A stretch of DNA of 64,000 nucleotides from Microbacterium sp. zg-Y818 (GTDB lineage Bacteria; Actinomycetota; Actinomycetes; Actinomycetales; Microbacteriaceae). This document shows positions 588 through 41,615 of the stretch, piece by piece (positions within the stretch are counted from its first letter, which is position 1; the number at the start of each line of letters is the position of its first letter). A model generated the notes under the pieces. That model did no database searches. It saw nothing but the letters and a program-made list of their open reading frames with translations, and was not told the DNA's origin. The position numbers were made by a program, and so were the translations under genes. The stretch is taken from positions 2,480,001 through 2,544,000 of the forward strand of contig NZ_CP126741.1 in the NCBI RefSeq assembly GCF_030246905.1. The letters run 5' to 3'.

Positions 588-593
588 CGATGT

Positions 594-1405: not shown

Positions 1406-1456
1406 TTCCGGTCGCCAGCGTGGTCGCACCGTCTCGCATCCATCCCAAGGAGACCC

Positions 1457-3202: not shown

Positions 3203-3212
3203 GGTGGTCACG

Positions 3213-3674: not shown

Positions 3675-3712
3675 CGGGACCCGCTTTCCCGGCTTCTGAA
3701 CCGTGAGACCCG

Positions 3713-3761: not shown

Positions 3762-3846
3762 GTCGTTTCAGCGATTGCGGGGGCGGGGGCGGGCGGGCGG
3801 GCGGCTGCGCGGCAGCGGGCGCGGCGCGGCCCGGTACTCCCCCCGC

Positions 3847-4854: not shown

Positions 4855-4899
4855 GTGTGCTCCTTCGCAAGTGGTGCCCGCATCGTCGGCGATGCGGGG

Positions 4900-5757: not shown

Positions 5758-5761
5758 GTCG

Positions 5762-6976: not shown

Positions 6977-6979
6977 TGC

Positions 6980-25253: not shown

Positions 25254-26719
25254 TGGGCCTCGAGGAATTCGTACACCTCGGTCGAGTCCACACCGGGGAA
25301 CGAACCCGTCGGCAGGGTCGCCAGGAGCGTGCGGGGCGTGCGCACGTTGGGCCACGAGTGCTCGCGCCACGCCGACTCGAGCTCCACCGGCGCGCGCCGG
25401 CAGCAGGCCTCCACGGAGTGCTTCGATACGCCCCGGTTCGGGGTGTCCCGGCCGAGGAACCACTTCGTGTCGTCGAACCGCACGCCCACGCTCACCGAGT
25501 GCGCCCCCTCGCTCGATGCCTCCACCCGCGCCGTGCACCAGTAGGTGCCGTTGCCGGTGTCCGTGTACTGGTAGTACGGGTTGAAGTGGTCGTCGACGTC
25601 GAAGACGACCCGGCTCGTCCACTTGCGGCAGCACATCTGGCCCTCGATCGACCCCAGCCGGTCGGTCGGAAAGTTCACGTCGTCGTTCTCGTACGCCTTG
25701 GTGATCGTGCCCGACTCGTGGACCTTCAGGAAGTGCACGCGGATGCCGAGATGCACCGTCGCCAGATTGGTGAATCGGTGGGCGGCGGTCTCGTACGACA
25801 CCGAGTAGGTGTCACGCAGATCCTCGATCGACAGGGCGCGGCGCTCCTTGGCGTCGGTGAGAGCCGGCACCACGTGCCCCTCGGGGATGAGCAGCGCCCC
25901 GGTGAGGTAGTTCGTCTCCACCCGCTGGCGCAGGAACTCCGCGTAGCTGTGCGGCTCGGAGTGCCCGAGGATGCGGCTCGACAGCGCCTGCAGCACGGCG
26001 GTGCGCGGGTCGGACTGCGCCCGCACCCGACTCGACAGGTACAGCCGCCCGTTCTTGATGTCCGCGACACTGCGGGTGGTCTGCGGCAGGTCGGGCACGT
26101 AGTGCAGCGTGAAGCCGAGGTGCGCGGCGATGTCGGATGCCGTGCGCTGCGTCAGCGGGCCTCCCGGGTGCCCCACGGCGTCGAGGAGGTCCCGGGCGTG
26201 CTGCTCCAGGTCGGGGAAGTAGTTGTTCTGCGTGCGCATCAGGCGCCGCAGCGCCACGTTCGCACGCCGTGCCTCTTCCGGCGTCGCCGATCGCTCGTCG
26301 CTCAGCCGCTCGATCTCGCTCTGCAGGGCGAGCATCGCCTTGATCGCCTCGGTGGGCACCGTCTTGCCCACTCGGAAGGGCGCGATGCCGAGCGCCTGGA
26401 ACGTCTGGCCGTGCATCGCTCGCTCCATCTGGATCTCGAGCGTCGAGCGCTCATCCAGCGGCTCGGTTTCGAGCAGCGCGTCCAGCGTCGACCCCAGCGC
26501 CCGTGCGATCGCCCGCAGCAGGGTCAGCTTCGGCTCCCGCCGACCGTTCTCGATCATCGAGAGCTGACTGGGGGCGCGGTCCACCGCGGCGGCGAGCTCG
26601 TCGAGGGTCATCCCCCGCGCCGTGCGCAGCTGCCGGATTCGACGGCCCATCGTGAGTGCGTCCACACCTTGATCGTCTGCCGTGACGGTCGACGCGGGTC
26701 CCGCGAACTCGATGCTCAT
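25241..26719 (-). CDS. ramB: RamB-type XRE regulator with ImmA/IrrE and ScfR domains
   Basis: A 492-residue regulator. An XRE helix-turn-helix spans about residues 25-80 (IRQLRTARGMTLDELAAAVD, then PSQLSMIENGRREPKL). A degenerate ImmA/IrrE peptidase-like region follows about 190-320, but I see no HExxH. The C-terminal domain, rich in Cys and Trp (GQMCCRKWTSRVVFDVDDHF; HSVEACCRRAP), is the short-chain fatty-acyl-CoA regulator type. This architecture is that of RamB, which in corynebacteria and mycobacteria controls acetate and glyoxylate-cycle genes. Its divergence from malate synthase and isocitrate lyase supports the name. The upstream gap holds two similar palindromes that may be its sites. 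Confidence 0.87.
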   Translation of the reverse strand: MSIEFAGPASTVTADDQGVDALTMGRRIRQLRTARGMTLDELAAAVDRAPSQLSMIENGRREPKLTLLRAIARALGSTLDALLETEPLDERSTLEIQMERAMHGQTFQALGIAPFRVGKTVPTEAIKAMLALQSEIERLSDERSATPEEARRANVALRRLMRTQNNYFPDLEQHARDLLDAVGHPGGPLTQRTASDIAAHLGFTLHYVPDLPQTTRSVADIKNGRLYLSSRVRAQSDPRTAVLQALSSRILGHSEPHSYAEFLRQRVETNYLTGALLIPEGHVVPALTDAKERRALSIEDLRDTYSVSYETAAHRFTNLATVHLGIRVHFLKVHESGTITKAYENDDVNFPTDRLGSIEGQMCCRKWTSRVVFDVDDHFNPYYQYTDTGNGTYWCTARVEASSEGAHSVSVGVRFDDTKWFLGRDTPNRGVSKHSVEACCRRAPVELESAWREHSWPNVRTPRTLLATLPTGSFPGVDSTEVYEFLEAHAPR

Positions 26720-26750
26720 TCCGCGATTCTGTCACGAACGCAGAACTATC

Positions 26751-26796
26751 GGGAAAGTTCACACCGGTTTCGGTCATCAAGGGCGTGAAACTTCAC
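26751..26796. promoter_or_regulatory. Two candidate RamB operators (GTGAA-N2-TTCAC type)
   Basis: GTGAAACTTCAC at 26785-26796 has perfect 5-base arms. GGGAAAGTTCAC at 26751-26762 is the same unit read on the opposite strand with one changed base (GTGAA-CT-TTCCC). They are 34 bases apart, in the 205-base gap between ramB and aceB. The first lies 32 bases before the ramB start codon. Such placement fits regulation of both divergent transcripts. Confidence 0.5.
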
Positions 26797-26924
26797 CGGA
26801 TAGTGGACACACGACGCACCGCCCAGGGATCCGAACCGCGGATCACGGGGTGCCGGACCGGCGCACACGCCGGGCGACGCACCTCGGAACACTCACCCGC
26901 ACTCGCTCACAGGAGAACAGGGAC

Positions 26925-28589
<1,665 letters not shown>

Positions 28590-28647
28590 CCCGCACCCGT
28601 CGCCGCGCGCGCGACTCCACCGTCACACCCCAACGAAGGGACCAGAA

Positions 28648-30243
28648 ATGACCACCTACCAGGACGACATCGAAGCCATCCAATCGCTCAAGGCGGAGCA
28701 CGGCTCCGCCTGGGATGCCATCAACCCCGAGTCCGTCGCCCGCATGCGGGCGCAGAACCGCTTCAAGACCGGGCTCGAGATCGCTCAGTACACGGCCGAC
28801 ATCATGCGGCGCGACATGGCCGAATACGACCAGGACTCATCGGTGTACACCCAGTCGCTCGGTGTCTGGCATGGCTTCATCGGCCAGCAGAAGCTGATCT
28901 CGATCAAGAAGCACCTCAAGACGACGAACAAGCGCTACCTCTACCTCTCGGGGTGGATGGTCGCCGCGCTCCGCTCGGAGTTCGGGCCGCTCCCCGACCA
29001 GTCGATGCACGAGAAGACGTCCGTGCCCGCCCTCATCGAGGAGCTCTACACGTTCTTGCGCCAGGCCGACGCCCGCGAGCTCGACCTGCTCTTCACCCAG
29101 CTCGACACGGCCCGCCTGGCCGGCGACGAGACGGGGGCCGAGTTCATCCAGACGCAGATCGACAGCTACGAGACCCACGTCGTGCCGATCATCGCCGACA
29201 TCGACGCCGGGTTCGGCAACCCCGAGGCCACGTACCTGCTGGCCAAGAAGATGATCGAGGCGGGCGCCTGCGCCATCCAGATCGAGAACCAGGTGTCGGA
29301 CGAGAAGCAGTGCGGCCACCAGGACGGCAAGGTCACGGTGCCCCACGAGGACTTCGTCGCCAAGATCAACGCCGTGCGCTACGCGTTTCTCGAGCTGGGC
29401 ATCGACAACGGGATCATCGTCGCCCGCACCGACTCGCTCGGCGCCGGCCTGACGCAGAAGCTCGCCGTCACGAACGAGCCCGGCGACCTGGGCGACCAGT
29501 ACAACTCGTTCCTCGATGTCGAGGAGATCTCGGAGAGCGACCTCGGCAACGGCGACGTCGTCATCAAGCGCGAGGGCCAGCTGCTGCGACCCAAGCGTCT
29601 CGCGAGCAACCTCTACCAGTTCCGCGCGGGTACCGGTGAGGAGCGGGTCGTGCTCGACTGCATCACGTCGCTGCGCAGCGGCGCCGACCTGCTGTGGATC
29701 GAGACCGAGAAGCCGCACGTGGAGCAGATCGCCGCCATGGTCGACGCGGTCCGCGCGGAGATCCCGGACGCGAAGCTCGTCTACAACAACAGCCCGTCCT
29801 TCAACTGGACGCTCAGCTTCCGCCAGCAGGCCTACGACCTGCTCGCCGAGCAGGGCGAGGACGTCTCGGCCTACGACCGCGGCGATCTCATGAACGTCGC
29901 GTACGACGACACGGAGCTCGGCCGGCTGGCCGATGAGAAGATCCGCACGTTCCAGCGCGACGGGTCGGCTCGGGCCGGCATCTTCCACCACCTCATCACG
30001 CTGCCGACCTACCACACGGCCGCGCTGTCGACCGATGACCTCGCCAAGGGGTACTTCGGCGACGAGGGCATGCTCGCCTACGTCCGCGGAGTTCAGCGCC
30101 GTGAGATCCGCGAGGGCATCGCAACGGTCAAGCACCAGAACATGGCCGGGAGCGACATCGGCGACAACCACAAGGAGTACTTCGCCGGCGCGGCGGCCCT
30201 CAAGGCAGGCGGCGCACACAACACGATGAACCAGTTCAGCTGA
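28648..30243 (+). CDS. aceA: Isocitrate lyase, long Pseudomonas-type
   Basis: A 531-residue isocitrate lyase. Mg ligands and substrate residues are in ADIDAGFGN (183-191). The catalytic loop reads DEKQCGHQDGK (218-228), with catalytic C222. The common short enzymes (about 430 residues, as in Corynebacterium and E. coli) have KKCGH. The KQCGHQDGK form, the length and the inserts around 250-330 match the 531-residue enzymes I remember from Pseudomonas and Acinetobacter. The protein cleaves isocitrate to glyoxylate and succinate. A GAAGGGACC site precedes the ATG. Confidence 0.95.
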   Translation: MTTYQDDIEAIQSLKAEHGSAWDAINPESVARMRAQNRFKTGLEIAQYTADIMRRDMAEYDQDSSVYTQSLGVWHGFIGQQKLISIKKHLKTTNKRYLYLSGWMVAALRSEFGPLPDQSMHEKTSVPALIEELYTFLRQADARELDLLFTQLDTARLAGDETGAEFIQTQIDSYETHVVPIIADIDAGFGNPEATYLLAKKMIEAGACAIQIENQVSDEKQCGHQDGKVTVPHEDFVAKINAVRYAFLELGIDNGIIVARTDSLGAGLTQKLAVTNEPGDLGDQYNSFLDVEEISESDLGNGDVVIKREGQLLRPKRLASNLYQFRAGTGEERVVLDCITSLRSGADLLWIETEKPHVEQIAAMVDAVRAEIPDAKLVYNNSPSFNWTLSFRQQAYDLLAEQGEDVSAYDRGDLMNVAYDDTELGRLADEKIRTFQRDGSARAGIFHHLITLPTYHTAALSTDDLAKGYFGDEGMLAYVRGVQRREIREGIATVKHQNMAGSDIGDNHKEYFAGAAALKAGGAHNTMNQFS

Positions 30244-30258
30244 GCGCCAGAACGACAT

Positions 30259-30298
30259 CGGCGGATGCCTCGGACCAGCCGGTCCGGGGCATCCGCCG
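30259..30298 (+). terminator. Strong terminator after the aceB-aceA operon
   Basis: The 11-base arm CGGCGGATGCC at 30259-30269 pairs with 30288-30298. Together with the inner CGGACC/GGTCCG and one G-U pair this makes an 18-bp stem on a 4-base loop, followed by TTTCCGTT. It starts 15 bases after the aceA stop. Confidence 0.88.
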
Positions 30299-30380
30299 TT
30301 TCCGTTCCTCGAAATGTCGATTTCCCCTGCCGCCGAACCGACGCGTTGTCGTAACGTCACTCCCAACGAAAGGCGACGCG

Positions 30381-30716
30381 ATGCGATACCTCATGCTGGT
30401 GCTCACCGATCCGGAGCTCGAGACCCCCGAAGAGCCGCCCGTGTCGATCGAGCAGTGGGTCGACGAGGCCTACGGCACCGACCGGGCCGTCGAGGGCGAC
30501 CGGCTGCGGCCCGCGTCCGAGGCGAAGACCATCCGACGGCGTCGGCGCGAGGTGATCGTCAGCGACGGCCCGTTCGCCGAGGCCTACGAACTCATCGGGG
30601 GCTTCGACGTGCTGGAGTGCGACAACCTCGATGAGGCGGTCGAGCTCGCGTCGCGGCATCCGATGGCCACCGCGGGGGTCATCCAACTGCACCCCGCCTG
30701 GCCACTGGACCTCTGA
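30381..30716 (+). CDS. YciI-like (DGPF-domain) protein
   Basis: A 111-residue protein of the YCII-related/DGPF family. The family signature SDGPFAEA stands at residues 61-68, after a beta strand RREVIV, and is followed by IGGFDVLECDNLDEAVELA and a final helix and strand. Such proteins are ferredoxin-like dimers of unknown function, often next to ECF sigma factors; none is nearby. TAACGT at 30352-30357 is a possible -10, and GAAAGG precedes the ATG. It converges on the adenylate-forming enzyme gene. Confidence 0.85.
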   Translation: MRYLMLVLTDPELETPEEPPVSIEQWVDEAYGTDRAVEGDRLRPASEAKTIRRRRREVIVSDGPFAEAYELIGGFDVLECDNLDEAVELASRHPMATAGVIQLHPAWPLDL

Positions 30717-30728
30717 CGTCGCCGCAGG

Positions 30729-32090
30729 TCAGCCGAGGGCGCTGCGATAGCGGCGGGGCTTTCCCTCGCCGAGGTCGGCCGGTCGCTCGACGCGCTCGAG
30801 CGTGAGCGGCCGACCGAGGAGGGCGTGCAGCGCCCGCGTCACGGCATCCGCGTCGCCACCGGCGATGCGGGCCGAGACGCTCCCGTCGGCCGCCTGCTCG
30901 ACGCTCCAGCCCAGCACGCCGTGGGCCTGCAGCTGCTGCGTGACGTCGACGCATGGCACCAGTCGACCGTCGGCGGCGGCGAAGCGGGTGTGCTCGCGCC
31001 CCTCCAGGTCGGCGATCCCGCGCGCCCCGTCGGCGAGGCGCACCAGCCGCCCGAAGTCGCCGGTGCGGTAGCGCACGAGGGGAAGCAGCGGGTTCTCCCC
31101 CGCCGTCACCACGATCTCGCCGACCTCGCCGTCGCGCACCGGCTGCCCGTCCGCATCGAGCGTCTCGACCACGACCCGCCGATCCAGCACCCGGAAGGGG
31201 CCGTCATCGGTGCGCACCGCGATCGGTCGCGTCTCGTGCAGGCTGTACACGTCGAACACCGGGCAGGCGAACGCCGCCTCGAGCTCCGCGCGGAGGGGTG
31301 CGGACAGCGCCATCGCGCTGGAGAACAGCGCGAGCGGACGCACGACGGCGCGCAGGTCGTCGGCGAGCAGCTCCGCCAGGCTCGTCGGGTTGCCGGTGAG
31401 CACCTGCGGGTCGGCGTCGGCGAGGAACCGCGCCCGGGCACCGGCATCCGTCCACGCCCGCTCGTGCAGGTTGATGCGCGCCATCGCCCGCTGGCCGAAG
31501 CCGCTCACGAGCGAGACGTACGTGAACGCATCCCGCTGGTGCACGAGATGGGCCAGGGCGAGGCGCTCGCCGTCGGGCGCCCAGCCGACACCGGCATCGT
31601 GCACCAGCGCGACGAGATCGTGGAACCCGCGGGCGACCTCCTCGACGTCGTCGGGAATGAGCAGCGCCGCTCCCGTGGAGCCCGAGCTGGTGCCGTGCAC
31701 CATGCGGTCGAGGTCCGCGTCGAGCGGCACGAACGACGCGAGGTCGTCGACGAGGTGGCGCCGCGTGATCGGGGGGAAGTCCTCGAAGGCATCCAGCCCC
31801 GGCATCCGCCGGTAGTAGAGCAGCCGCCGCGCCGTTGCCAGGTGCTCGTCGAGCCACCCCGCGGTGGGCAGCGGCCTTCGTGCCCGATCGGTCATCTCGG
31901 CGGTCAGGCGGTCCCCCGTCGCGTGCGTCCACGCCGGGGCGCTCGGATGCCGCCGCCACCGCGCCAGCCGGGCGGCGCCGTCGGCGTCCATGGTCGGCCA
32001 CCGCTCCGCATCGGTGAGCACCGCTGCGGCACCGGGCGTGTATTCGTCGAGGACCAGCGGATCGCGCTCGTCGCGGTGCGCAGCGGTCAC
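30729..32090 (-). CDS. PaaK/CapK-like adenylate-forming enzyme
   Basis: A 453-residue member of the phenylacetate-CoA ligase / CapK-like branch of AMP-forming enzymes. The ATP-loop reads GTSSGSTGAALL in the first third, where most relatives have a Lys or Arg after the TG. VYSLHETRP is motif A5, YRTGDFGRL is motif A7, and GKPRRYRS at the C-terminus holds the likely catalytic lysine of the mobile domain. It should adenylate a carboxylate and may pass it to CoA or another acceptor; the substrate is unknown. The GTG start lies 9 bases after the preceding gene. It is the last gene of the MoxR-VWA cluster, an unusual partner for an acyl-activating enzyme. Confidence 0.72.
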   Translation of the reverse strand: MTAAHRDERDPLVLDEYTPGAAAVLTDAERWPTMDADGAARLARWRRHPSAPAWTHATGDRLTAEMTDRARRPLPTAGWLDEHLATARRLLYYRRMPGLDAFEDFPPITRRHLVDDLASFVPLDADLDRMVHGTSSGSTGAALLIPDDVEEVARGFHDLVALVHDAGVGWAPDGERLALAHLVHQRDAFTYVSLVSGFGQRAMARINLHERAWTDAGARARFLADADPQVLTGNPTSLAELLADDLRAVVRPLALFSSAMALSAPLRAELEAAFACPVFDVYSLHETRPIAVRTDDGPFRVLDRRVVVETLDADGQPVRDGEVGEIVVTAGENPLLPLVRYRTGDFGRLVRLADGARGIADLEGREHTRFAAADGRLVPCVDVTQQLQAHGVLGWSVEQAADGSVSARIAGGDADAVTRALHALLGRPLTLERVERPADLGEGKPRRYRSALG

Positions 32091-32099
32091 CTGGACCGC

Positions 32100-32708
32100 T
32101 CACTCACTGGTGTACCTGGCCGCCGCCTCGCGCGCGCGGGCCTCGGACAGGCGGCGGGCGATCTCGGACCGGTGACGGTGCTCGGCGTAGGCCTCGGCGA
32201 GCGCGGCGTTGCGGCGCAGCGAGTCGCGTGCGTCCAGCAGCGACCGCGCGGTGTCGATGCTCTCGCCCGCCGGAAGGAATCCGCACCACAGCAGAAACGT
32301 GCGCGCCGCCTCCTCGCGGCGCTCGTCGTCGCTGATCCAGTCGAGCGGATCGACGATCGGGGCCAGTCGCAGCGCGAGGGCATCCACCGCCATGGCGCGG
32401 TCGCCGCCGACGAGGGTGGGCGTGAACGGCTCGACGACGTCCTCGCTCGCGATCAGCCACAGCGCCACCGACGCTCCGAGCTGCACGCGCGCATTCTGCG
32501 TGACGGAGAGGCACCGCAGCGATTCGCCGAGGATGTCGCCGGCGAGCGCAGGCAACGAGATCCGTTCGTCGAGGAACGGGCGCGGCACGCTGGACAGCCG
32601 GGAGGCGACGGCCGCAAGCGACGGGCCGGGGCGGGCGGACCGCCAGGCGTCGTCCTCCGCCGGCGCGCGCTCCGCCCACGCCGCGAGCAGATCGTCGATC
32701 TCAGCCAT
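32100..32708 (-). CDS. Unknown helical protein of the MoxR-VWA cluster
   Basis: A 202-residue protein with no family I recognise. It looks mostly helical, without signal peptide, transmembrane segment or conserved Cys/His pattern. It opens with an acidic helix MAEIDDLLAAWAER. The C-terminal 60 residues (from about ARSLLDARDSLRR) are rich in Arg, Ala and Glu and could form a coiled coil. The ATG overlaps the stop of the metallopeptidase-VWA gene by eight bases, so the two are translationally coupled. A role as an adaptor for that protein is inference from context only. Confidence 0.7.
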   Translation of the reverse strand: MAEIDDLLAAWAERAPAEDDAWRSARPGPSLAAVASRLSSVPRPFLDERISLPALAGDILGESLRCLSVTQNARVQLGASVALWLIASEDVVEPFTPTLVGGDRAMAVDALALRLAPIVDPLDWISDDERREEAARTFLLWCGFLPAGESIDTARSLLDARDSLRRNAALAEAYAEHRHRSEIARRLSEARAREAAARYTSE

Positions 32709-34575
32709 GCAGTGCCTCCGCCAGACGCGCGCACACCGCGGGCGCGTCGTCCATCGTCTTCAGGAACAAGGTGTCGTAGCCCACGCCCGCCGCCACGTGT
32801 TCGATACGTCGGGCGCGGTCCATCAGAATGAGCGTTCCCGAGGTGAGCTTCGTGCGCGTGGCCGCCGCCACGTGCGCGTAGATCTCGTTGCGCACCCCGA
32901 ACATCGACTCGAGGCCGTCATCCGAGAGCACGACGAGGTGCCGGCGCACCTCCTCCGCCGGTGGCGGCAGCGGGGCGTACCTCCGCTCGAGCAGGTCGAG
33001 CGGAAAGGTCGTGCCCCCGGCGAAGAACCACGCGAGGTCGCCCACGATCCGCGCGGGGTCGCGCGAGAACGCTTCGTCGCCGGCCACCTGGCCGGAGCCC
33101 GAGAAGCTCGTCACGCGCACCCGCCCGCCGCCGCGCAGGACCGAGAGGGCGAGGATCGTTCCGGCGAGCACCGCGGGGGAACCGTCCCGAGGGTCGGGCA
33201 TGGAGCCGGACGAGTCGACGTACAGGTCCAGGGCGATGCTCGACTCCTGCGGCTCCGGCTCATCGTCGAGGAACGAGCGGCGCCGAGTCGTCACCCCTGG
33301 GACGATGTCCGCGCCGGCCTGCAGCGTCGCCGACCAGTCGATGTCGGCGAGATCGTCGCCCAGCTCCCACGCTTCGAGCGGACCGGGCAGTTCGGGGACC
33401 GGCCGCGCGGGGCGACGCTGGCGGAGGGGCCTGACCCAGGGCGTGGCCTCGAGGCGGTACCACGCGGCCGTGACCGCCTCGGCGTCGACGGTGGAGTAGA
33501 GCTCGAGGGTGCGGGCCAGATCCAGGCTCTGACCCGGGGCGTCGCCCGCGCGGACCGTGCTGCGCCCCGTCCCGCGTGCGGGCTCGCGCCCGGAACGGTC
33601 GGGAAGAGCACCCGAGAGCCGGCGATCGGCCAGCACCCGGCCGAGTTCGTGCGGCGTGGGCGCTGCCTCATCCGCCGCGCACCCGCCGGGTGCCCCCGCG
33701 ATGCCGGGTCCACCCCGGCGCTGCCCCTCCACGAGATAGGGCGCAGCGAGCACGCCGAAGCGCAACGCGCCGCCGACGGGGTCGACGGCGAAGGTGCGCA
33801 CGAGTCCCGCGAGCAGGTCGGCGTCGAGCGCGGGGCGCGTCGTGATGACGCTGTCCAGCTCCGCCGCGATGCGCGCCGCCTCCCGGCGCGCATTGCGCAG
33901 CATCTCCTCACTCATCCGACGGTGCGCCGGGATCTGATCCAGGGGCACCTCGTCGAAGGCATCCACCGCCCGCGGCGCCGGCGGCGCCGGCGGCTGCGCA
34001 GCACACAGGGTCGCGGCCGGCAGATTCCACACCAGCTCGTAGGTGCGCAGGTACACCCACCACAGCCGGTGCGGGGTGTCATAGGAGTCGCGGTACAGCG
34101 CGCGGGACAGTCGGATGATCCCGGGCTCGGGCTCTCCGTCGCGGCGGCGCTGCAGCATGGCGACGCGCGCGTTCACGAGCAGATCGGTCCAGAGGTTGGA
34201 CAGCAGCGCCAGGTCGTCCTTGCGAATGGCGTCCGCTCCGGATGCCACGAGGGCACGTCCCAGCTGGTGGCGGATCTTCAGCGCGTCGATGCGCGTGCTC
34301 GGCGCGAGCACGTGGTGGCCGATCTCGTGGGCGAACACGCTCTCCATCTCGGCCGCACCGCCCATCTCACCGACCATGGCGGGGTCGACGAAGACCGACG
34401 GCGGAAAGGAGAACCACGCCGGCGCGCCGCGTTCGGCTCCTGCGCCGGGCCGCAGCTCGGCGTCGTGCATGCGCACTCCCCAGAGGGCGAGAGCCCGGGT
34501 CCAGGCATCACGCGTCGCGCCGTCCAGCGGCACCGTCGCCGGTGCCGGCGAGGTGGGGGCCGCCTCCGAGCTCAC
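32701..34575 (-). CDS. Zinc-metallopeptidase / von Willebrand factor A fusion protein
   Basis: A 624-residue cytoplasmic protein. The N-terminal domain carries the zincin motif HEIGH at 83-87 in VFAHEIGHHVLAP, followed by LWTDLLVNARVA (129-140), which resembles the second half of the DUF2201-type metallopeptidase core. Then comes a less ordered middle region (about 190-440) rich in Pro, Arg and Gly. The VWA domain begins about 445 with a complete MIDAS: D454, S456 and S458 in VDSSGSM, T522 or T523 in GGTTF, and D552/D553 in VLSDDG. The GTG start overlaps the preceding stop (GTGA). MoxR ATPases commonly remodel complexes through VWA partners; here the VWA is tethered to a putative protease. 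Substrates are unknown. Confidence 0.8.
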   Translation of the reverse strand: MSSEAAPTSPAPATVPLDGATRDAWTRALALWGVRMHDAELRPGAGAERGAPAWFSFPPSVFVDPAMVGEMGGAAEMESVFAHEIGHHVLAPSTRIDALKIRHQLGRALVASGADAIRKDDLALLSNLWTDLLVNARVAMLQRRRDGEPEPGIIRLSRALYRDSYDTPHRLWWVYLRTYELVWNLPAATLCAAQPPAPPAPRAVDAFDEVPLDQIPAHRRMSEEMLRNARREAARIAAELDSVITTRPALDADLLAGLVRTFAVDPVGGALRFGVLAAPYLVEGQRRGGPGIAGAPGGCAADEAAPTPHELGRVLADRRLSGALPDRSGREPARGTGRSTVRAGDAPGQSLDLARTLELYSTVDAEAVTAAWYRLEATPWVRPLRQRRPARPVPELPGPLEAWELGDDLADIDWSATLQAGADIVPGVTTRRRSFLDDEPEPQESSIALDLYVDSSGSMPDPRDGSPAVLAGTILALSVLRGGGRVRVTSFSGSGQVAGDEAFSRDPARIVGDLAWFFAGGTTFPLDLLERRYAPLPPPAEEVRRHLVVLSDDGLESMFGVRNEIYAHVAAATRTKLTSGTLILMDRARRIEHVAAGVGYDTLFLKTMDDAPAVCARLAEALHG

Positions 34576-35243
34576 GCGGCATCCCACACGTGGACCCACG
34601 CGAGGTACGAGCTGGGCGTGCAGACGATCGACGCGGCCGAATCGGATGCCGGCGGGGCCTGCGCGATCGGGTCGCCGTCCGTGTCGTCCATCCTCACCAG
34701 ACGGTGACCCCACACGTCGGCGTCCAGCCGCCACCACTCGTCGCCTGCGCGGATCGCGAAGGCGCCCGGTTCCGACAGCGGCACGCCCAGCTCGGGCGGC
34801 ATGATCCAGGCGCCGCCGAGACCGGCGAAGCCGCCGACGGCGCAGACATACCCGCGCGCGGCGGGTCGCCGCGGCCACCAGAAGCGGTCGGTGCGCTGCG
34901 CCGCGGCGAACGCCGCCACCGATTCCACGCCGTCCAGCCCGAGCGTGCGGCCGGCGGCGAGACCGGCGCCGCCGGCCACCAGCGCGTCGAGCCTGGTCAG
35001 TGCGTCATCGCGGTAGGCGAGCGCTCCGGCGCGCCATGCCGCAACGGCCGCGTAACTCAGCAGCTCATCGCGATCGGGGGCGGGCCTCTCCTCCAGCGCA
35101 GCCGCCAGGCCGGCGCCGAAGAGCGCGGGGTCGCCACCGGCGCGGCGGACGTTCTCGGCGGCGAGGGCGACATCGAATCCGGCCAGCTGAGGCGGACCGC
35201 CCAGCGGCGCCTCGGCGTTCGCGAGATGGCCGGGCCGATTCAC
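34572..35243 (-). CDS. Unknown protein of the MoxR-VWA cluster
   Basis: A 223-residue protein of unrecognised family. The N-terminal half is helical and Ala-rich (FDVALAAENVRRAGGD; LSYAAVAAWRAGALAY). The C-terminal half is rich in Trp and Gly with alternating strands (DRFWWPRRPAARGYVCAVGG; GAWIMPPELGVPL; DEWWRLDADVWGHRLV), suggesting a small beta domain. There is no signal or membrane segment. I take the GTG at 35243, which overlaps the MoxR stop as GTGA like the next junction; a GTG six codons earlier is possible. Tight coupling on both sides suggests stoichiometric production with MoxR and the VWA protein. Confidence 0.7.
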   Translation of the reverse strand: MNRPGHLANAEAPLGGPPQLAGFDVALAAENVRRAGGDPALFGAGLAAALEERPAPDRDELLSYAAVAAWRAGALAYRDDALTRLDALVAGGAGLAAGRTLGLDGVESVAAFAAAQRTDRFWWPRRPAARGYVCAVGGFAGLGGAWIMPPELGVPLSEPGAFAIRAGDEWWRLDADVWGHRLVRMDDTDGDPIAQAPPASDSAASIVCTPSSYLAWVHVWDAA

Positions 35244-36811
35244 GATTGGGTCACCACCCACTTCACATACGCGGTGTAGCGCTGGTGCAGGTACTTGAGC
35301 GTCGTCAGATCGTCGAAGTCACGCCCGTACAGCTTGCCCGTCGCCGCGATGGACCGTATGCGCGCCTCGATCTCGGTGAGGCGGCGGGAGGCCTCGACGC
35401 CCGAGACGCCGTCCAGGCCGGCGTCGAGCTGTGTCAGCAGGTCGCGCACGGGGTCGTCGCTTTCACGGCCGAGCGCGTCGAACTGACGGCAGGATTCGGC
35501 GAACAGGTCGGCGAGCCAGCTCACCGGATCGGTGGCGAGTTCGCGTTCCGCGCCGATGTCGAACCGCGGATGCGTGGTGTTGGGAAGCAGCTTGCCCCGC
35601 AGCACGAACGGCAGCATCGCGGTGACGTCTTCCACGCCGACCACGTCGGCACCGCGGAACCACGCCATGGCCTTGGCGTAGAGGATGAGGGTCTGCATCG
35701 CCCGCACCGACAGTCCGTTGATCGTCTGGGCCCCGACGTCGGCGGCGAGGTCCGCTCCGGTGTTGACGTCGATGATCTCGGCGACCCGTCCGCCGGCCGT
35801 CGTGACGGTGTCCTTGGTGCGGTACTCGAAGCGGCGACCGCCGTGCTGCACGAACTCGAAGTGGCTGAGGAAGAACTCCAGCCGCCGGCGCACCGCGGAG
35901 GGCAGCGGCACGGCACGGATCGCGGCGCGCATCCGCGCGTGCTCCTCGGGCGAGAACACCAGCTCCTCCGGCACGTGCTCCTCGGGCTTCTCTCCCGCCT
36001 CGACGCGCGTGATGAGCTCGTCGAGGAAGCGGCTGTTGAAGCTCGCCGACTGCACGGTCACGTCCATGCGGTCGCGCAGCGCCTGGATGACCGGGAACGT
36101 GCCGCCCCCCGCGTCGTCGTTCGCCGTGAAGAACCAGCTCTCCACGCCCCGGTGGGGGTTGGTCCGGTGCATCTGGTCGTGGCTCTCGACATAGCCCTCC
36201 GCGACCATCGTCAGCAGGGCGGACTGCGTCTTGGTGGGGATGCGGTTGTACTCGTCGATGATCTTCACCGGGCGCGTCAGCCACTCGCGCCAGGCGATCC
36301 CGATCTCCGCCAGGCTCGACGCGTTGATGAGGTCGCGCGGCAGCGGGATGCCGACGAGGTCGCTGATGGTGAGTTGCGGCTGCCCCTGCTGCACGCCGCG
36401 GCGGACGTCGTCTGCGGATGCTCCCGCCAGCACGCCCATGAGCACCGCCACTGTGGTCTTGCCCCGGCCCGGCCCCCCGATCATGAGGCACTTCCCCCCG
36501 ACCGCGAAGGTCAGCAGCGGCAGCAGGACGTTAGACGAGAACGACGCATCGGTGGGGAGGGTCATGACGGCGCCGGCGTCGCCCAGCGCGTAGGTCAGCG
36601 GCGCGCCAGAAGAGAACTCGACGTCGTAGTACGGCGAGATGACGGCCCTGTTGACGATCCAGTAGTACGTCTGGCGCAGCTTCTCATCGAGCGCGGCGTG
36701 GCGTTCCTCGTCGGGCGCGCGGAACAGATCGTCCGCAGTGAGCTGCGCCACGCCCGCAGCGTGCGCGGGAGAGGTGGGCGAAGCCGAGACTCTGTGCCAG
36801 CGGTCGGACAT
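35240..36811 (-). CDS. MoxR-like AAA+ ATPase
   Basis: A 523-residue AAA+ ATPase. Walker A is GGPGRGKT (112-119), Walker B is VKIIDEYNRIP (182-192), sensor 1 is WFFTANDD, and an arginine-finger region RDRMDV follows. The DEYNRIP sequence is typical of MoxR-like proteins. The protein is longer than classic MoxR (about 320-350), with an added N-terminal helical segment of 90 residues and a C-terminal helical extension after residue 420. MoxR proteins act as chaperones that load metals or remodel VWA-containing partners. The ATG lies 9 bases after the nadR stop, so it is probably read from the upstream genes as well. Confidence 0.88.
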   Translation of the reverse strand: MSDRWHRVSASPTSPAHAAGVAQLTADDLFRAPDEERHAALDEKLRQTYYWIVNRAVISPYYDVEFSSGAPLTYALGDAGAVMTLPTDASFSSNVLLPLLTFAVGGKCLMIGGPGRGKTTVAVLMGVLAGASADDVRRGVQQGQPQLTISDLVGIPLPRDLINASSLAEIGIAWREWLTRPVKIIDEYNRIPTKTQSALLTMVAEGYVESHDQMHRTNPHRGVESWFFTANDDAGGGTFPVIQALRDRMDVTVQSASFNSRFLDELITRVEAGEKPEEHVPEELVFSPEEHARMRAAIRAVPLPSAVRRRLEFFLSHFEFVQHGGRRFEYRTKDTVTTAGGRVAEIIDVNTGADLAADVGAQTINGLSVRAMQTLILYAKAMAWFRGADVVGVEDVTAMLPFVLRGKLLPNTTHPRFDIGAERELATDPVSWLADLFAESCRQFDALGRESDDPVRDLLTQLDAGLDGVSGVEASRRLTEIEARIRSIAATGKLYGRDFDDLTTLKYLHQRYTAYVKWVVTQS

Positions 36812-36820
36812 CGCGCCAGC

Positions 36821-37888
36821 CTACCGGCCGGTCTGCCGCGCCAGCGCGCGCTGCTCCTCGTGCGGCCGATCCCCCAGCGGGCGCGCGAATGCCAGCCGGC
36901 GGGCGACGACGTCGCGGATGAGGGGGACGGATGCCGCGACGCGCTCGGCGACGGTGCCCCGCACCTCCGCCCAGGGGGTGCCCTGCCCGGTGAGCGTCTC
37001 TCGGAAGCGGTCCTGCATCGCATGACGGATGTGCTCGCCGTCGCGCATGCCGTCCTGCACGAAGGGGATCTCGTCCCCTGTCAGGAGATAGAGGTCGGGC
37101 GCGTGGGCGGCTGCGCGCTCCCGCAGCCGCGGCGCGTCGACCCCGACGTACCGCTCGTGCCAGAGCGCCGTGGCGAGGACGTCGGTATCGCACACCAGCA
37201 CGGGCGCCGGGACGCGGCGCAGGGCGTCGCGCTCCAGCGCCATCTGGCGGTCGGCGATGAGGTCGAACTCGTCGGTGCGCCACGGGGCGATGAGCCCCCC
37301 GTCCCGCGTCAGGGAGTGCTCGCGTCCGTACTCGGGAACCCAGAGCGTGCCCAGCTCTGCGGCGAGCGCCTCGGCGAGGGTGGTCGAGCCGGTCGATTCC
37401 GCGCCGAGCACCACCACCCGCCCGGCGAGCGACGCCCGCACGGCCGGCGCGAGCTCGCCCCACTGCCCCGCCGGGTCGGCGCGCACTGCGGTGCCCGACA
37501 CGGGATTGAGCCGGCGCTGCGGGTCGACCTGCACCCACGCGGCCCCGAGCCGTCGGGCGAGCTCGTCCCCGTACTCATCGGAGGTGAAGACGGCATCCAC
37601 CGGTGCGTCGAGCAGCCCCGCGATGATGGCGGTGTGCGCATCCCACGCGGTGGAGGACTCGAAGTCGATGGGGGTGTCGTCCAGCTTCGAGACCACCCGC
37701 ACCCGGGGGTGCTCCTCAGCGACCCATTGCGCCCTCACCTCGACCGGGATCGACTCCACGGACGATCCGATCACCTCGACGGTGACACGCGCGCTGGAAC
37801 GCTCCGCCGTGCGGATGAGGTGCCCATGGCCGACGTGCAGCGGGTAGAACTTGCCGATCACGAGTGCGTGGCGGTAGAGCGCACTCAC
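36821..37888 (-). CDS. nadR: NadR-like NMN adenylyltransferase / ribosylnicotinamide kinase
   Basis: A 355-residue bifunctional enzyme. The N-terminal nucleotidyltransferase has GKFYPLHVGHGHL (12-24) with H18 and H21 for ATP binding. The C-terminal kinase domain begins GRVVVLGAESTGSTTL. In E. coli-type NadR the P-loop has Lys after the TG; here the residue is S168 (codon TCG). I recall Thr or Ser at this place in other actinobacterial NadR-like proteins, so it may be normal for the lineage. The HTH domain of enterobacterial NadR is absent. It makes NAD from nicotinamide riboside or NMN delivered by PnuC, whose gene overlaps it by four bases (GTGA). Confidence 0.88.
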   Translation of the reverse strand: MSALYRHALVIGKFYPLHVGHGHLIRTAERSSARVTVEVIGSSVESIPVEVRAQWVAEEHPRVRVVSKLDDTPIDFESSTAWDAHTAIIAGLLDAPVDAVFTSDEYGDELARRLGAAWVQVDPQRRLNPVSGTAVRADPAGQWGELAPAVRASLAGRVVVLGAESTGSTTLAEALAAELGTLWVPEYGREHSLTRDGGLIAPWRTDEFDLIADRQMALERDALRRVPAPVLVCDTDVLATALWHERYVGVDAPRLRERAAAHAPDLYLLTGDEIPFVQDGMRDGEHIRHAMQDRFRETLTGQGTPWAEVRGTVAERVAASVPLIRDVVARRLAFARPLGDRPHEEQRALARQTGR

Positions 37889-38502
37889 GCGCGCGCCGCC
37901 GCGGCGGCATCCGCCGGCGCCGTGGCCTCGGCCGCCCGCTGCACGCGTCGCCACGCGCGCAGGCTGAACACGCACAGCACGATGAAGAGGGCATACAGCG
38001 CGGCGACGATCCACAGGCCGGTCGCGATCGACAGCGCGACGAAGGCGATGTCGACGCCGATCCACACGTACCAGCTCTCGATCCACTTGCGGTTGAGCAT
38101 GTACTGCGCCACGAGGCTCGCCGAGGTGGTGGCGGCGTCCGCGACCGCGACCTGCGAGTCGGTGAAGGAGATCAGCATCCAGGCGATGACGGCGGCGAGC
38201 CCGATGCCGGCGGCGATGAGCCAGAGCACCGCGCGCCGCGGCGTGCGGGCGATGTAGCTCTTGTCCTGCTCGACCGCGCGCGTCCAGCGCAGCCAGCCGT
38301 GGATTCCCAGCCCCAGGTACACCAGCTGCAGCGCGGCCGAGGCGTAGAGGCCGGCGGGGAGGAAGACGGCGAGGAAGACGACGTTGTTCGCGATGCCGAC
38401 GGGGTAGGTCCACACGTTCCGCCGCCCGGCCAGCACGACGCACGCGGCGCCTGTTGCGAACCCTAGAACCTGCATCCACTCCGCCAGAAGCCACTCGATC
38501 AC
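37885..38502 (-). CDS. pnuC: Nicotinamide riboside transporter PnuC
   Basis: A 205-residue membrane protein with about seven hydrophobic segments. The family pattern is clear: NVWTYPVGIANNVVF near residue 30, LQLVYLGLGIHGWLRW around 59-74, and NRKWIESWYVWIGVDI around 136-151. PnuC is a facilitated-diffusion channel for nicotinamide riboside, driven by phosphorylation by NadR in the cytoplasm. That partner is encoded immediately downstream with overlapping codons. I saw no riboswitch directly upstream; the 41-base gap to the ABC permease leaves no room for one. Confidence 0.93.
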   Translation of the reverse strand: MIEWLLAEWMQVLGFATGAACVVLAGRRNVWTYPVGIANNVVFLAVFLPAGLYASAALQLVYLGLGIHGWLRWTRAVEQDKSYIARTPRRAVLWLIAAGIGLAAVIAWMLISFTDSQVAVADAATTSASLVAQYMLNRKWIESWYVWIGVDIAFVALSIATGLWIVAALYALFIVLCVFSLRAWRRVQRAAEATAPADAAAAARA

Positions 38503-38543
38503 GCGACGAGCCTACGGGTCCGCGCGCGCCCCTCCCGACGGCG

Positions 38544-39353
38544 TCAGGCGTCGCGGCGGATCCAGCGGAACGTCGCCCTGCTGAGGATGAGTCCCACCAG
38601 CAGCCAGATGCCGAGCGCCAAAGCCACCCAGCCGAGCTCCCAGCCGTCCCCCGGCTCGAGGGTCGCGTACTCCGGGGGCAGGAACGCCGCCCGCATCCCC
38701 CGCGCCATCCACACCAGGGGGAAGGCGCTGGCGACGTACTGCAACCAGTCCGGCAGCTGCCAGAAGAAGATGTAGACGCCGGAGACGAACTGCAGCACCA
38801 GCGCGATGGGGACCACCACGGCCGTGGCGCTGCGCCCGGAACGCGGCAGCGCAGACACGGCGATGCCCAGGAGCGCCGAGGCGATGAGCCCGAGCAGGAA
38901 CACCCACGCGAAGGTGATCCACGAGTCGGCGTCCGACGGCAGGGCCACATCGAACACCAGGGCGGCCACGACGATGAGGATGAACGCCTGCAGGATGCCG
39001 GTGATCAGCACCTGCCCGATCTTGCCGGCGAAGTAGCTCACCGGTGACAGCGGGGTGCCGCCGAGGCGTTTGAGTGTGCCGTCGGATCGTTCCATCGCGA
39101 TGTCGACGGCGAGGTTCTGGAAGCCCGAGAGCAGCAGCCCCGCGGCGAGCATGGCCGGCAGGTACAGCTCGGCCGCCGACAGCGCCGGGACCCCGGGGCC
39201 GCCGGTGATGTCGCCGTCGTCGCCGAAGATCGTGCTGAACAGGGCCAGCATGAACACCGGGAAGAGGAACGTGAAGAAGAGGGTGTCGCCGGAGCGGAAG
39301 TAGCCCCGCACTTCGTAGGCGGCCCGGTGGGCGCCGAGGGTGATGACGTTCAT
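38544..39353 (-). CDS. ABC-2 type transporter permease
   Basis: A 269-residue permease with a cytoplasmic start, a first helix DTLFFTFLFPVFMLALFSTI, five further hydrophobic segments and a polar end. The pattern LQFVSGVYIFFWQLPDWLQYVASAFPLVWMARG, seen in overlapping parts, is typical of drug- or antibiotic-exporting ABC-2 permeases. The ATG overlaps the ATPase stop by four bases. It is predicted to export an unknown hydrophobic compound or membrane component. Confidence 0.88.
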   Translation of the reverse strand: MNVITLGAHRAAYEVRGYFRSGDTLFFTFLFPVFMLALFSTIFGDDGDITGGPGVPALSAAELYLPAMLAAGLLLSGFQNLAVDIAMERSDGTLKRLGGTPLSPVSYFAGKIGQVLITGILQAFILIVVAALVFDVALPSDADSWITFAWVFLLGLIASALLGIAVSALPRSGRSATAVVVPIALVLQFVSGVYIFFWQLPDWLQYVASAFPLVWMARGMRAAFLPPEYATLEPGDGWELGWVALALGIWLLVGLILSRATFRWIRRDA

Positions 39354-40258
39354 CGTCCCACCTCCTCCTGCGTCGTCGTGGGCGTGCGCGGCGCGCTGTC
39401 CGATTCCTCTCCGGAGGGCGGCTCGTCGACCATATCGAGGTAGATCTCCTCGAGGGCGGGCCGCCGGATCTCGAGCGCCTCGGGCTCACCGCCCAGGCGC
39501 GCGGCGAGCGCCGCCGTGAACTCCCACGGAGTGGCGGTGCGAGCCTCGCGCATGACACCGCCCTCGCGCCATACGACGCGGGGCGTGCGGGCCTCCTCCC
39601 CGCCGAAGGTCGCCACCGGGCCGATCGCGCGCAGCCGGCCCCGCGTGATCACCGCGACCCGGTCGGCCAGCTGTGCGGCCTCGTCGAGGTAGTGGGTCGT
39701 GAGCAGGATGGTGGTCCCCTCCCCCTGCAGCCGTCGGATGAGCTGCCAGAACTCGCGACGCGCCTGTGGGTCGAATCCGGTGGTGGGCTCGTCGAGGAAG
39801 AGCAGCTCGGGACGGCCGATGATGCCGAGGGCCACGTCGACCCGCCGCTGCTGACCGCCGGAGAGCTTCGCGATGCGGGTGCCGGCCTGGCGCTCGAGCC
39901 CGACGGCGGCGATGACCTCGTCCACGTCGCGCGGCCGCGGGTAGTAGGCCGAGAACTGCCGCAGCTGCTCTCGCACGGTGTAGACACCGGCCTGTCCGGC
40001 GGACTGCAGCACGATGCCGATCCGCGCCTTCCATTCCAGGCTCGCCGTGCCGGGGTCGGCGCCCAGCACCGAGACGTCGCCGCCGGTGCGACGCCGGTAC
40101 CCCTCGAGGATCTCGACCGTGGTGGACTTGCCCGCGCCGTTCGGGCCCAGCAGGGCGAAGGTCTCGCCGCGGGCGATGTCGAAGCTCACGTCGTCGACGA
40201 CGGCGTTGCCGCCGTACGTCTTTCGCAGGTTGCGCACCCGAACGGCATCACTGTCCAT
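39350..40258 (-). CDS. ABC-2 type transporter ATP-binding protein
   Basis: A 302-residue ABC ATPase of the DrrA/NatA kind. Walker A is GPNGAGKST (38-46), the signature is LSGGQQRR (132-139), Walker B is LLFLDEPTTGFDP (152-164), and the switch histidine follows in TTHYLDEA. A 70-residue C-terminal extension follows, as in antibiotic exporters. It is the first gene of a long leftward gene series. The ribosome binding site is weak. Together with the permease it would form a homodimer-plus-homodimer exporter. Confidence 0.92.
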   Translation of the reverse strand: MDSDAVRVRNLRKTYGGNAVVDDVSFDIARGETFALLGPNGAGKSTTVEILEGYRRRTGGDVSVLGADPGTASLEWKARIGIVLQSAGQAGVYTVREQLRQFSAYYPRPRDVDEVIAAVGLERQAGTRIAKLSGGQQRRVDVALGIIGRPELLFLDEPTTGFDPQARREFWQLIRRLQGEGTTILLTTHYLDEAAQLADRVAVITRGRLRAIGPVATFGGEEARTPRVVWREGGVMREARTATPWEFTAALAARLGGEPEALEIRRPALEEIYLDMVDEPPSGEESDSAPRTPTTTQEEVGR

Positions 40259-40376
40259 ATGACCAGCTTGGGGGTTCGCGGCCTGATTACCCAGCCACGT
40301 AGGGCTGCTCCCCAGGCGGGAGGGGCGGCACGCCCCGCGAATGACGGTCTGGGGTGAGCCCGAGACCGCCGCGGGC

Positions 40377-40382
40377 TACGCT
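40377..40382 (+). promoter_or_regulatory. Probable -10 of a leaderless aspC promoter
   Basis: TACGCT ends six bases before the GTG at 40389, and no ribosome binding site precedes it. It is identical in sequence and spacing to the element before gabT. Confidence 0.5.
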
Positions 40383-40388
40383 CGTAAC

Positions 40389-41588
40389 GTGACCGAACGC
40401 GCCCCACTCTCCCGCAAGCTGTCCGCCATCGCCGAGTCCGCGACGCTCAAGGTGGATGCCAAGGCGAAATCGCTGCAGGCTGCCGGTCGCCCCGTCATCT
40501 CGTACGCCGCCGGCGAGCCCGATTTCGCCACGCCGCAGTTCATCGTGGATGCGGCCGCAGAGGCGCTGAAGGACCCCGCGAACTACCGCTACACGCCTGC
40601 GGTCGGGCTGCCCGTGCTGCGCGACGCGATCGTCGCCAAGACGCTGCGCGACTCCGGGCTCGAGGTCTCGCCCTCGCAGGTCATCGTGACCAACGGCGGA
40701 AAGCACGCCGTCTACCAGGCGTTCCAGACGGTGGTGAACCCCGGCGACGAGGTGCTGCTGCCCGCACCGTATTGGACCACCTACCCCGAGGCGATCGCCC
40801 TCGCCGACGGCGTGCCCGTCGAGGTGTTCGCCGGTGCCGACCAGGACTACAAGGTGACCGTGGAGCAGCTCGAGGCGGCCCGCACCGACAAGACGACGGC
40901 GCTCGTGTTCGTCTCGCCGTCCAACCCGACGGGCTCGGTCTACACCGCCGAGGAGACCAAGGCGATCGGCGAGTGGGCACTCGAGCACGGCATCTGGGTG
41001 ATCACCGACGAGATCTACCAGAACCTGGTCTACGAGGGCGTCCGCGCCGTCTCGATCGTCGAGGCCGTGCCGGACCTCGCGGGACAGACCCTGCTGGTCA
41101 ACGGCGTCGCGAAGACCTACGCGATGACCGGCTGGCGGGTGGGCTGGATGGTCGGGCCGGCCGACGCCATCAAGATCGCCGGCAACCTGCAGTCCCACCT
41201 CACCTCCAACGTCAACAACATCGCCCAGCGCGCGGCCCTCGCAGCACTGACCGGCCCGCAGGAGGACGTCGAGCAGATGCGCCTGGCGTTCGACCGCCGC
41301 CGTCGGCTGATCGTCGAGGAGCTGTCGAAGATCGAGGGCGTCACCGTGCCCAAGCCGCTCGGCGCGTTCTACGTGTATCCGGACGTCAGCGGGCTTCTCG
41401 GCCGCACGTGGGGCGGTGTCACGCCCACCACCTCGCTGGAGCTGGCCGACCTCATCCTCGACCAGGCCGAGGTTGCCGTGGTCCCGGGCGAGGCCTTCGG
41501 CCCCTCGGGTTACCTGCGCCTGTCGTACGCGCTCGGCGACGACCAGCTGCTCGAGGGCGTGCGCCGGCTGCAGGACCTCTTCGCCTGA
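40389..41588 (+). CDS. aspC: Pyridoxal-phosphate aspartate aminotransferase (class I)
   Basis: A 399-residue class I aminotransferase of the Iβ/γ bacterial AspAT kind. N179 in VSPSNPTG and D207/Y210 in ITDEIYQ contact PLP, K242 in [10 protein letters not shown] forms the Schiff base, and R250 in GWRVG follows. [12 protein letters not shown] near the start is the usual substrate-arm region. It interconverts aspartate and oxaloacetate with glutamate and 2-oxoglutarate. The GTG start fits the family and a leaderless promoter. In other actinobacteria I recall aspC lying close to murB and to tRNA-Trp-secE-nusG; here only murB is still near. Confidence 0.9.
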
Positions 41589-41596
41589 CGCCCCGG

Positions 41597-41615
41597 CGGC
41601 CGGTATCGCCGGCCG
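41597..41615. terminator. Short hairpin between convergent aspC and murB
   Basis: CGGCCGG at 41597-41603 pairs with CCGGCCG at 41609-41615 around a 5-base loop, nine bases after the aspC stop. There is no T-run, so its strength is uncertain. Confidence 0.35.

What the first reader, a model, noticed from the sequence alone, without database searches (positions are those of the whole stretch)
30729..36811. Five-gene MoxR / metallopeptidase-VWA / adenylate-forming-enzyme cluster, a candidate new system
Seen: MoxR AAA+ ATPase, unknown 223 aa, HEIGH-zincin plus VWA fusion, unknown 202 aa and PaaK/CapK-like ligase, with stop-start overlaps of 4, 4 and 8 bases and a final gap of 9. Known: MoxR ATPases work with VWA proteins to remodel complexes, and MoxR-VWA pairs take part in stress and some conflict systems. 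Inference: the two unknown proteins and the acyl-activating enzyme are dedicated parts of one machine that couples ATP-driven remodelling, proteolysis and a carboxylate adenylation or ligation step. I do not know this five-gene combination as a described system.
Basis: partly seen in the sequence, partly recalled or inferred. Interest (0 to 1): 0.78.

Follow-up and report, generated by a model that had tools for sequence, protein, structure and literature searches.

The report
NAD-linked MoxR–VWA–ligase gene cassette
A block of seven genes that bacteria of several phyla keep together links a protein-remodelling machine and an acid-activating enzyme to the uptake of a vitamin B3 form and its conversion to NAD; the function of the block is unknown, and the linkage was not found in the papers searched.

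Summary
The five genes are as described and the cluster is real: all five lie together in 58 of 62 fetched loci. The frame was too narrow: NadR (36821-37888) and PnuC (37885-38502) upstream belong to it. A relative lacks window 30724-38543, exactly these seven genes. PnuC-NadR lies in 38 of the 62 loci. Of the other 24 genomes I searched 23, and 20 have NadR elsewhere; those placed in a tree belong to other NadR lineages. In the Leptospirales class, 11 of 12 genomes with the VWA protein have NadR, against 0 of 36 without. NadR also joins the locus at its other end there and in Acidobacteriota. Exceptions: two Mycobacterium-group genomes with a divergent cluster have no NadR hit.

The 202-aa protein is HEAT-like and ends in a conserved glutamate (81 of 84 ORFs), a candidate ligand for the VWA metal site. 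Best reading: a NAD-coupled MoxR/VWA remodelling machine with a dedicated adenylate-forming enzyme; client and reaction unknown, no structure prediction possible. New variant of the MoxR-VWA kind; the NAD link is testable.

The parts
30724..38543 (.). Seven-gene cassette: the stretch missing in L191 (genome G025, closest by malate synthase), where 56 bp lie instead
   Evidence: Window 26000-30723 and 38544-41598 align to L191 (reversed) 50-4759 and 4816-7848; gene order; closeness
30729..32090 (-). PaaK-like adenylate-forming enzyme, 453 aa; A3-, A5-, A7- and A10-like motifs (motif names recalled)
32100..32708 (-). G4, 202 aa; HEAT-like middle part, charged C-terminus
32103..32129 (-). Last nine codons of G4: conserved C-terminal tail ending in Glu
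   Evidence: 120 of the 120 listed relatives (of 189 found) end in E; 81 of 84 ORFs in the loci
32701..34575 (-). HEIGHH metallopeptidase-like domain fused to a VWA domain, 624 aa
34312..34329 (-). HEIGHH motif (residues 83-88)
   Evidence: HExGHH in 87 of 87 ORFs
33202..33216 (-). MIDAS DxSxS of the VWA domain (residues 454-458)
   Evidence: DxSxS pattern in 87 of 87 ORFs; D454, S456, S458, T522 and D552 invariant in A1 and A5
34572..35243 (-). G2, 223 aa, unknown; invariant GGFxG in its C-terminal half
35240..36811 (-). MoxR-type AAA+ ATPase, 523 aa
36455..36478 (-). MoxR Walker A GGPGRGKT (residues 112-119)
   Evidence: pattern in 73 of 76 ORFs; the three misses are short pieces of 120-236 aa
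36821..37888 (-). NadR: NMN adenylyltransferase / ribosylnicotinamide kinase homologue, 355 aa (start as placed by my gene caller)
37885..38502 (-). PnuC-type transporter, 205 aa
   Evidence: Pfam NMN_transporter 155.6 bits, cut-off 27.3

Best explanation
The finding is the larger part of a seven-gene accessory cassette, PnuC-NadR-MoxR-G2-VWA/zincin-G4-PaaK-like, inherited as a unit. SHOWN: co-inheritance, related gene orders in three phyla, conserved catalytic motifs, and that the five-gene cluster is nearly always found with a NadR, adjacent or not. INFERRED: it is one NAD-coupled remodelling machine. MoxR forms the ATPase ring; the zincin-VWA protein is its adaptor; G4 (HEAT-like) docks on the VWA metal site through its conserved C-terminal Glu; G2 is a further adaptor. 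The machine acts, by ATP-driven remodelling and possibly proteolysis, on a client for which the dedicated adenylate-forming enzyme prepares an activated carboxylate. Salvage through PnuC-NadR supplies the NAD (or NMN) that the client or reaction consumes. The NAD coupling is well supported; the client and the chemistry are a guess.
For: Unit: an otherwise collinear relative lacks exactly the seven genes, while two congeners carry the same seven at other points of the neighbourhood. VWA protein against NadR: 98 relatives, both 6, VWA only 1 (cut off at a contig end), NadR only 1, Fisher p 4.6e-8; Leptospirales class, NadR in 11 of 12 with and 0 of 36 without, p 5.3e-10; genus of G102 (Mycobacterium group), 4 of 6 against 11 of 112, p 2.3e-3; phylum sample of 396, 2 of 2 against 10 of 394, p 8.4e-4. 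In 20 of 23 cluster genomes without NadR in the locus one lies elsewhere; in ten such NadR regions viewed PnuC is next to it in nine and one gene away in one. The unlinked NadRs placed in the tree fall outside the clade of adjacent actinobacterial ones, which argues for a requirement, not hitch-hiking. Different layouts in the Leptospirales class and in Acidobacteriota again include NadR. Motifs: HExGHH and DxSxS 87 of 87, G4 terminal Glu 81 of 84; MoxR Walker A 73 of 76, ligase A3-like 72 of 72. The G4 profile matches designed alpha-repeat proteins (best E 1.9e-7) and a natural HEAT protein (8.8e-5).
Against: Fisher tests ignore kinship, and related genomes inflate them. Two Mycobacterium-group genomes with a divergent cluster have no NadR hit, nor do the genomes of L067, L069 and L070 (L067 is a draft; L069 and L070 show no ligase in the stretch). 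Of the eight Acidobacteriota genomes with the VWA protein only G118 was searched whole for NadR (weak hit); two others have it in the locus, five were not searched; a ligase hit is present in 5 of the 8 loci. NadR also occurs without the cluster: 10 of the 12 NadR genomes of the phylum sample (three of these ten are partial matches near E 1e-21, a fourth partial at 6e-32). The kinase P-loop of the actinobacterial NadRs listed, this one included and L140 excepted, has Ser or Thr for the usual Lys, so the riboside-kinase step is uncertain here. The terminal Glu of G4 is missing in L151 and followed by one residue in L223. No interaction or activity was tested.
Confidence: 0.5

Rival explanations
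1. Biosynthesis: the cassette makes a small molecule or cofactor derived from NAD or NMN. PnuC-NadR feed the precursor, the PaaK-like enzyme activates an acid, and MoxR-VWA matures a metalloenzyme of the pathway.
For: NCBIfam names near the ligase include natural-product enzymes (bagremycin/ferroverdin, flexirubin; weak). In divergent loci a radical SAM enzyme joins: L161 right after the ligase, L068 about 2.5 kb after the VWA gene together with a DegT-type PLP enzyme (Pfam). The next gene of L161 looks PLP-like by eye only (no Pfam hit).
Against: No further gene family is constant beside the seven; most neighbours there were clustered but not annotated. The genome of L161, which has these extras, has no NadR hit.
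Confidence: 0.2
2. Stress or phage-conflict system: the machine answers an insult and PnuC-NadR restore NAD lost to NAD-consuming effectors.
For: Patchy accessory distribution, 6 of 59 genus genomes; MoxR-vWA pairs are proposed cores of conflict systems (PMC7159879, passages).
Against: Only weak P-loop matches in PADLOC, no recognised effector among the seven proteins, housekeeping flanks in the window; no relative of the VWA protein found in viral, plasmid and phage collections.
Confidence: 0.12
3. NadR-PnuC merely travels with the cluster because the carriers need NAD salvage for other reasons (lifestyle).
For: NadR occurs without the cluster; carriers are related within each set.
Against: In the locus in three phyla in different layouts; present or absent as one block; other NadR lineages where unlinked; 0 of 36 Leptospirales-class genomes without the VWA protein have it.
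Confidence: 0.12

Closest known systems
NorQ-NorD type MoxR/VWA chaperones (PMC13036017, passages)
   Same: MoxR-type AAA+ ATPase next to a VWA protein with a MIDAS; remodelling is the likely mode
   Different: Extra zincin domain, G2, G4, ligase and NAD salvage genes; no metalloenzyme client gene was seen to be constant beside it
MoxR plus metallopeptidase-vWA pair of group 2.2 jumbo phages (PMC7824862, passages)
   Same: VWA co-chaperone fused to an N-terminal metallopeptidase domain, paired with MoxR
   Different: The passages mention no ligase, G2, G4 or NadR partner and propose virion assembly; the phage collection has no tblastn match to this VWA protein
MoxR-vWA ternary conflict systems such as VMAP (PMC7159879, passages)
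   Same: MoxR-vWA core with dedicated further proteins
   Different: No iSTAND, FtsH or propeller part by Pfam in the seven proteins; MoxR N-terminal motifs of VMAP systems not seen; no VMAP profile was at hand
PnuC-NadR nicotinamide riboside salvage
   Same: Same two families, adjacent
   Different: Here embedded in a MoxR-VWA-ligase operon; kinase P-loop Lys replaced in the window copy
PaaK-like adenylate-forming enzymes; best NCBIfam match DVU_1553 family
   Same: ANL core motifs
   Different: Far below every curated cut-off listed; substrate unknown

Membership tests
MoxR-VWA co-chaperone pair | MoxR-type AAA+ with Walker A/B, gene near a VWA protein | tested here: met
   Pfam AAA_3 and AAA_lid_2; motifs 73 of 76; co-location
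MoxR-VWA co-chaperone pair | VWA partner with an intact MIDAS (DxSxS, T, D) | tested here: met
   DxSxS pattern 87 of 87; T522 and D552 invariant in A1 and A5; but no Pfam VWA hit for the window protein
MoxR-VWA co-chaperone pair | Complex formation and remodelling of a client | not testable with these tools
   structure prediction unavailable
VMAP-type ternary conflict system | MoxR N-terminal motifs WxhapG and PsWRxa (as quoted) | tested here: not met
   Not conserved in the ten rows of A7, read by eye
VMAP-type ternary conflict system | VMAP, iSTAND, FtsH or propeller component | tested here: inconclusive
   No such Pfam hit in the seven window proteins; no VMAP profile available
DUF2201 (recalled as metallopeptidase plus VWA-like) | Pfam match | tested here: not met
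   No hit at E <= 0.1; the resemblance is recalled only
PaaK / phenylacetate-CoA ligase | Curated equivalog score | tested here: not met
   TIGR02155 36 bits, cut-off 646.3
PaaK / phenylacetate-CoA ligase | ANL core motifs | tested here: met
   A3-like 72, A5-like 68, A7-like 68, A10-like 67 of 72; L067 and L185 are cut ORFs, the other misses were not examined
NadR | Adenylyltransferase HxGH motif | tested here: met
   HVGH in the window; H/RxGH in 57 of 59, the two misses are short ORFs; PDB NadR matches
NadR | Curated equivalog-domain score | tested here: not met
   TIGR01526 162.9 bits, cut-off 341.15
NadR | Kinase Walker A lysine | tested here: not met
   Ser in the window; Ser or Thr in the actinobacterial NadRs listed except L140; Lys in the Leptospirales-class ones
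PnuC | Pfam NMN_transporter | tested here: met
   155.6 bits, cut-off 27.3
Known anti-phage systems | PADLOC model match of the five proteins | tested here: not met
   only weak GajB hits to about 20 residues at the P-loop of MoxR; PnuC and NadR were not scanned

The most novel reading that the evidence does not exclude
The PaaK-like enzyme adenylates the C-terminal carboxyl of G4, which ends in a conserved tail with a final Glu, making G4 a protein tag or carrier. The MoxR ring and the zincin-VWA protein thread, cut or recycle it, and NadR-made NAD (or NMN) is the second substrate: a NAD-dependent protein-conjugation machine unlike the known ones.
Probability: 0.07. Interest if true: 0.95.

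Novelty: new variant of a known kind. Interest (0 to 1): 0.7.

Why it matters
If true, MoxR-VWA machines, known for metal insertion, enzyme reactivation and proposed conflict systems, have a further branch tied to NAD salvage and an adenylate-forming enzyme. The full set is seen in at least three phyla, and the VWA protein has many relatives (556 and, with a second profile, 3204 proteins at E <= 1e-3 among the 8000 candidates scored each time; not all need be of this system). It would give a role to two protein families without a name and makes a clear prediction: the five-gene products need NadR-type salvage. Carriers include named Microbacterium and Agromyces strains, in which gene removal can be tried.

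Tried and rejected
Defence system: PADLOC, viral, plasmid and phage searches gave nothing to support it. Phage morphogenesis pair: no phage match at protein level. Source names: some relatives of the VWA protein are called 'NAD/NADP transhydrogenase alpha subunit' and of G4 'phosphohydrolase'; I found no domain support for either in the window proteins and treat both as mislabels. A cluster-specific kinase defect of NadR: rejected, because the NadRs of genomes without the cluster listed have Thr in place of the lysine too. The f38-lineage MoxR-VWA pairs (L146-L150) show no G2, G4, ligase or NadR hit and score low; distant cousins, left out of the 2 of 396 count. Solved-structure searches with profiles gave nothing convincing for G2 (one hit, E 0.036) or the VWA protein (best E 0.005, to triosephosphate isomerase). 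Promoter and repeat scans were uninformative. My regex for the MIDAS Thr was badly written (3 of 76; 71 of 87); I rely on the alignments for that residue. The pattern for an [ST]D near the last MIDAS residue missed 4 of 76 and 6 of 87.
Full report
OBSERVATION. The five ORFs, lengths and overlaps are as reported. Pfam and NCBIfam name MoxR and the ligase only weakly and leave the 223-aa (G2) and 202-aa (G4) proteins without a family. The window lies in a 3.23-Mb one-contig genome. I place it in Microbacterium by inference: its nearest named relatives in the protein and NadR results are Microbacterium.

CONSERVED UNIT. A profile of the VWA protein found 62 loci in one-genome-per-species data. 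Six-frame profile search finds all five genes in 58 of 62; the other four are L052 (contig end), L068, L069 and L070. Clustering of neighbouring genes showed PnuC and NadR directly upstream of MoxR with differing outer flanks; 38 of 62 loci have both. Over all 87 loci given, which include duplicates of some genomes and regions chosen because they hold the VWA gene, 78 have all five genes; 50 of these also have NadR and 45 PnuC.

GAIN AND LOSS. In the same genus 6 of 59 genomes, the window's own included, have the VWA protein. I fetched 20 regions around malate synthase of the 52 genomes that have it; 18 are from genomes without the cassette. In L191 aceB, aceA, YCII, ABC permease and ABC ATPase follow each other, and window 30724-38543 is missing, with 56 bp in its place. 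The other 17 also lack the seven genes, but their gene content between aceB and the aminotransferase varies. L205 and L206 carry the seven genes at other points of this neighbourhood. Among the ten flanking window genes scanned no integrase or transposase was named.

NADR DEPENDENCE. VWA against NadR: 98 relatives, both 6, VWA only 1 (G054, where the cluster runs into a contig end: L006 ends 14 bp beyond the match), NadR only 1 (G081). 396 phylum genomes, counting only the full-length family at E <= 5e-56: both 2, NadR only 10; 16 further genomes had VWA-domain hits at 1e-16 to 1e-23 and were not counted; the five of these that I looked at are bare MoxR-VWA pairs. 118 genomes of the genus of G102: both 4, VWA only 2 (G581, G598, divergent), NadR only 11. 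48 genomes of the class of G116: both 11, VWA only 1 (G117, draft), NadR only 0 (one of the 11 NadR matches, G660, is partial). Fisher p: 4.6e-8, 8.4e-4, 2.3e-3 and 5.3e-10; the first two sets overlap and kinship is not corrected. Of the 24 genome-contig loci without NadR I searched 23 genomes (L052 left out); 20 have NadR elsewhere, the hit in the Acidobacteriota genome of L068 being weak (E 3e-22). I viewed ten unlinked NadR regions (L132-L140, L145; L138 is a further, broken match in G105, and L140 is G278): PnuC is next to NadR in nine and one gene away in L140. In the NadR tree the 21 adjacent actinobacterial NadRs chosen form one clade (98/97), while the unlinked genomes placed use other lineages (48 rows, a chosen subset). 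The tool warns that long branches meet for the Leptospirales-class rows.

OTHER PHYLA. Group names are those of the record titles of L065 (Leptospirales) and L068 (Acidobacteriota). Leptospirales class (12 genomes with the VWA protein): L178 has MoxR-G2-VWA-G4-PaaK-PnuC-NadR; L179-L183 have NadR after the ligase and no PnuC hit in the stretch; L065, L067, L184, L185 and L187 have the five genes without NadR in the stretch; L186 keeps only part. Acidobacteriota: 8 of 297 genomes have the VWA protein at E <= 1e-40; L220 and L222 carry all five plus PnuC-NadR (in L222 on the opposite strand), L221 the five, and L068, L219 and L223-L225 only part or a divergent set. Names add Chloroflexota; their context was not seen. 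In the divergent L161 and L162 all five genes are found, without NadR or PnuC in the stretch.

ANATOMY. HExGHH and an NxxxDxxxN pattern are in 87 of 87 VWA ORFs, DxSxS likewise. MoxR is 46-70% identical to the window copy in nine rows across phyla. The ligase keeps its ANL motifs and is nearest to PaaK-like structures. G4's profile matches alpha-repeat and HEAT proteins. Its last nine residues are more conserved (0.86) than the rest (0.64); it ends in Glu in the 120 listed of 189 relatives and in 81 of 84 ORFs (L052 is cut by the contig end, L151 and L223 differ). The tail is kept in L219, where no ligase hit lies in the stretch, and in weak G4-like genes of L068 and L069; this favours docking on MoxR-VWA over being a ligase substrate. 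That a target protein supplies the sixth ligand of the MIDAS metal is described for this kind (PMC13036017, passages); acidic-residue precedents in Midasin and CbbO are recalled.

LITERATURE. In 5.39 million open papers, one holds both MoxR and NadR (PMC7824862; passages, show them in separate contexts) and none holds MoxR with PnuC or PnuC with phenylacetate-CoA ligase. Further searches, seen as listings. Most subscription papers and all preprints are outside that library. The metallopeptidase-vWA plus MoxR pair itself is already in print for jumbo phages.

VERDICT. A real, multi-phylum, seven-gene system; membership in the MoxR-VWA kind is met by sequence; the NAD coupling is the new and testable part; the mechanism is open.

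Noticed in passing
window 36821-37888 and NadRs: Actinobacterial NadRs listed there, with or without the cluster, have Ser or Thr in place of the Walker A lysine of the kinase domain (L140 excepted); the Leptospirales-class ones keep Lys.
   Followed up: partly
L161:10226-12054; L068:13067-15606: Divergent clusters have a radical SAM enzyme nearby, with a DegT-type PLP enzyme in L068 and a PLP-like gene by eye in L161.
   Followed up: partly
L064: Mycolicibacterium houstonense locus with altered order: a VWA ORF upstream of MoxR, and VWA, G4 and ligase hits in two pieces or copies.
   Followed up: no
L178:13095-14936 and L065:1337-3136: In two Leptospirales-class loci the gene upstream of MoxR encodes another VWA-type protein; the one in L178 has VWA and CsgG-like Pfam hits, the one in L065 resembles it by eye.
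   Followed up: no
L220: Acidobacteriota locus with two G4 and two ligase copies before PnuC-NadR.
   Followed up: no
L146-L150: A lineage (f38) has a bare MoxR-VWA pair distantly related to this one.
   Followed up: partly
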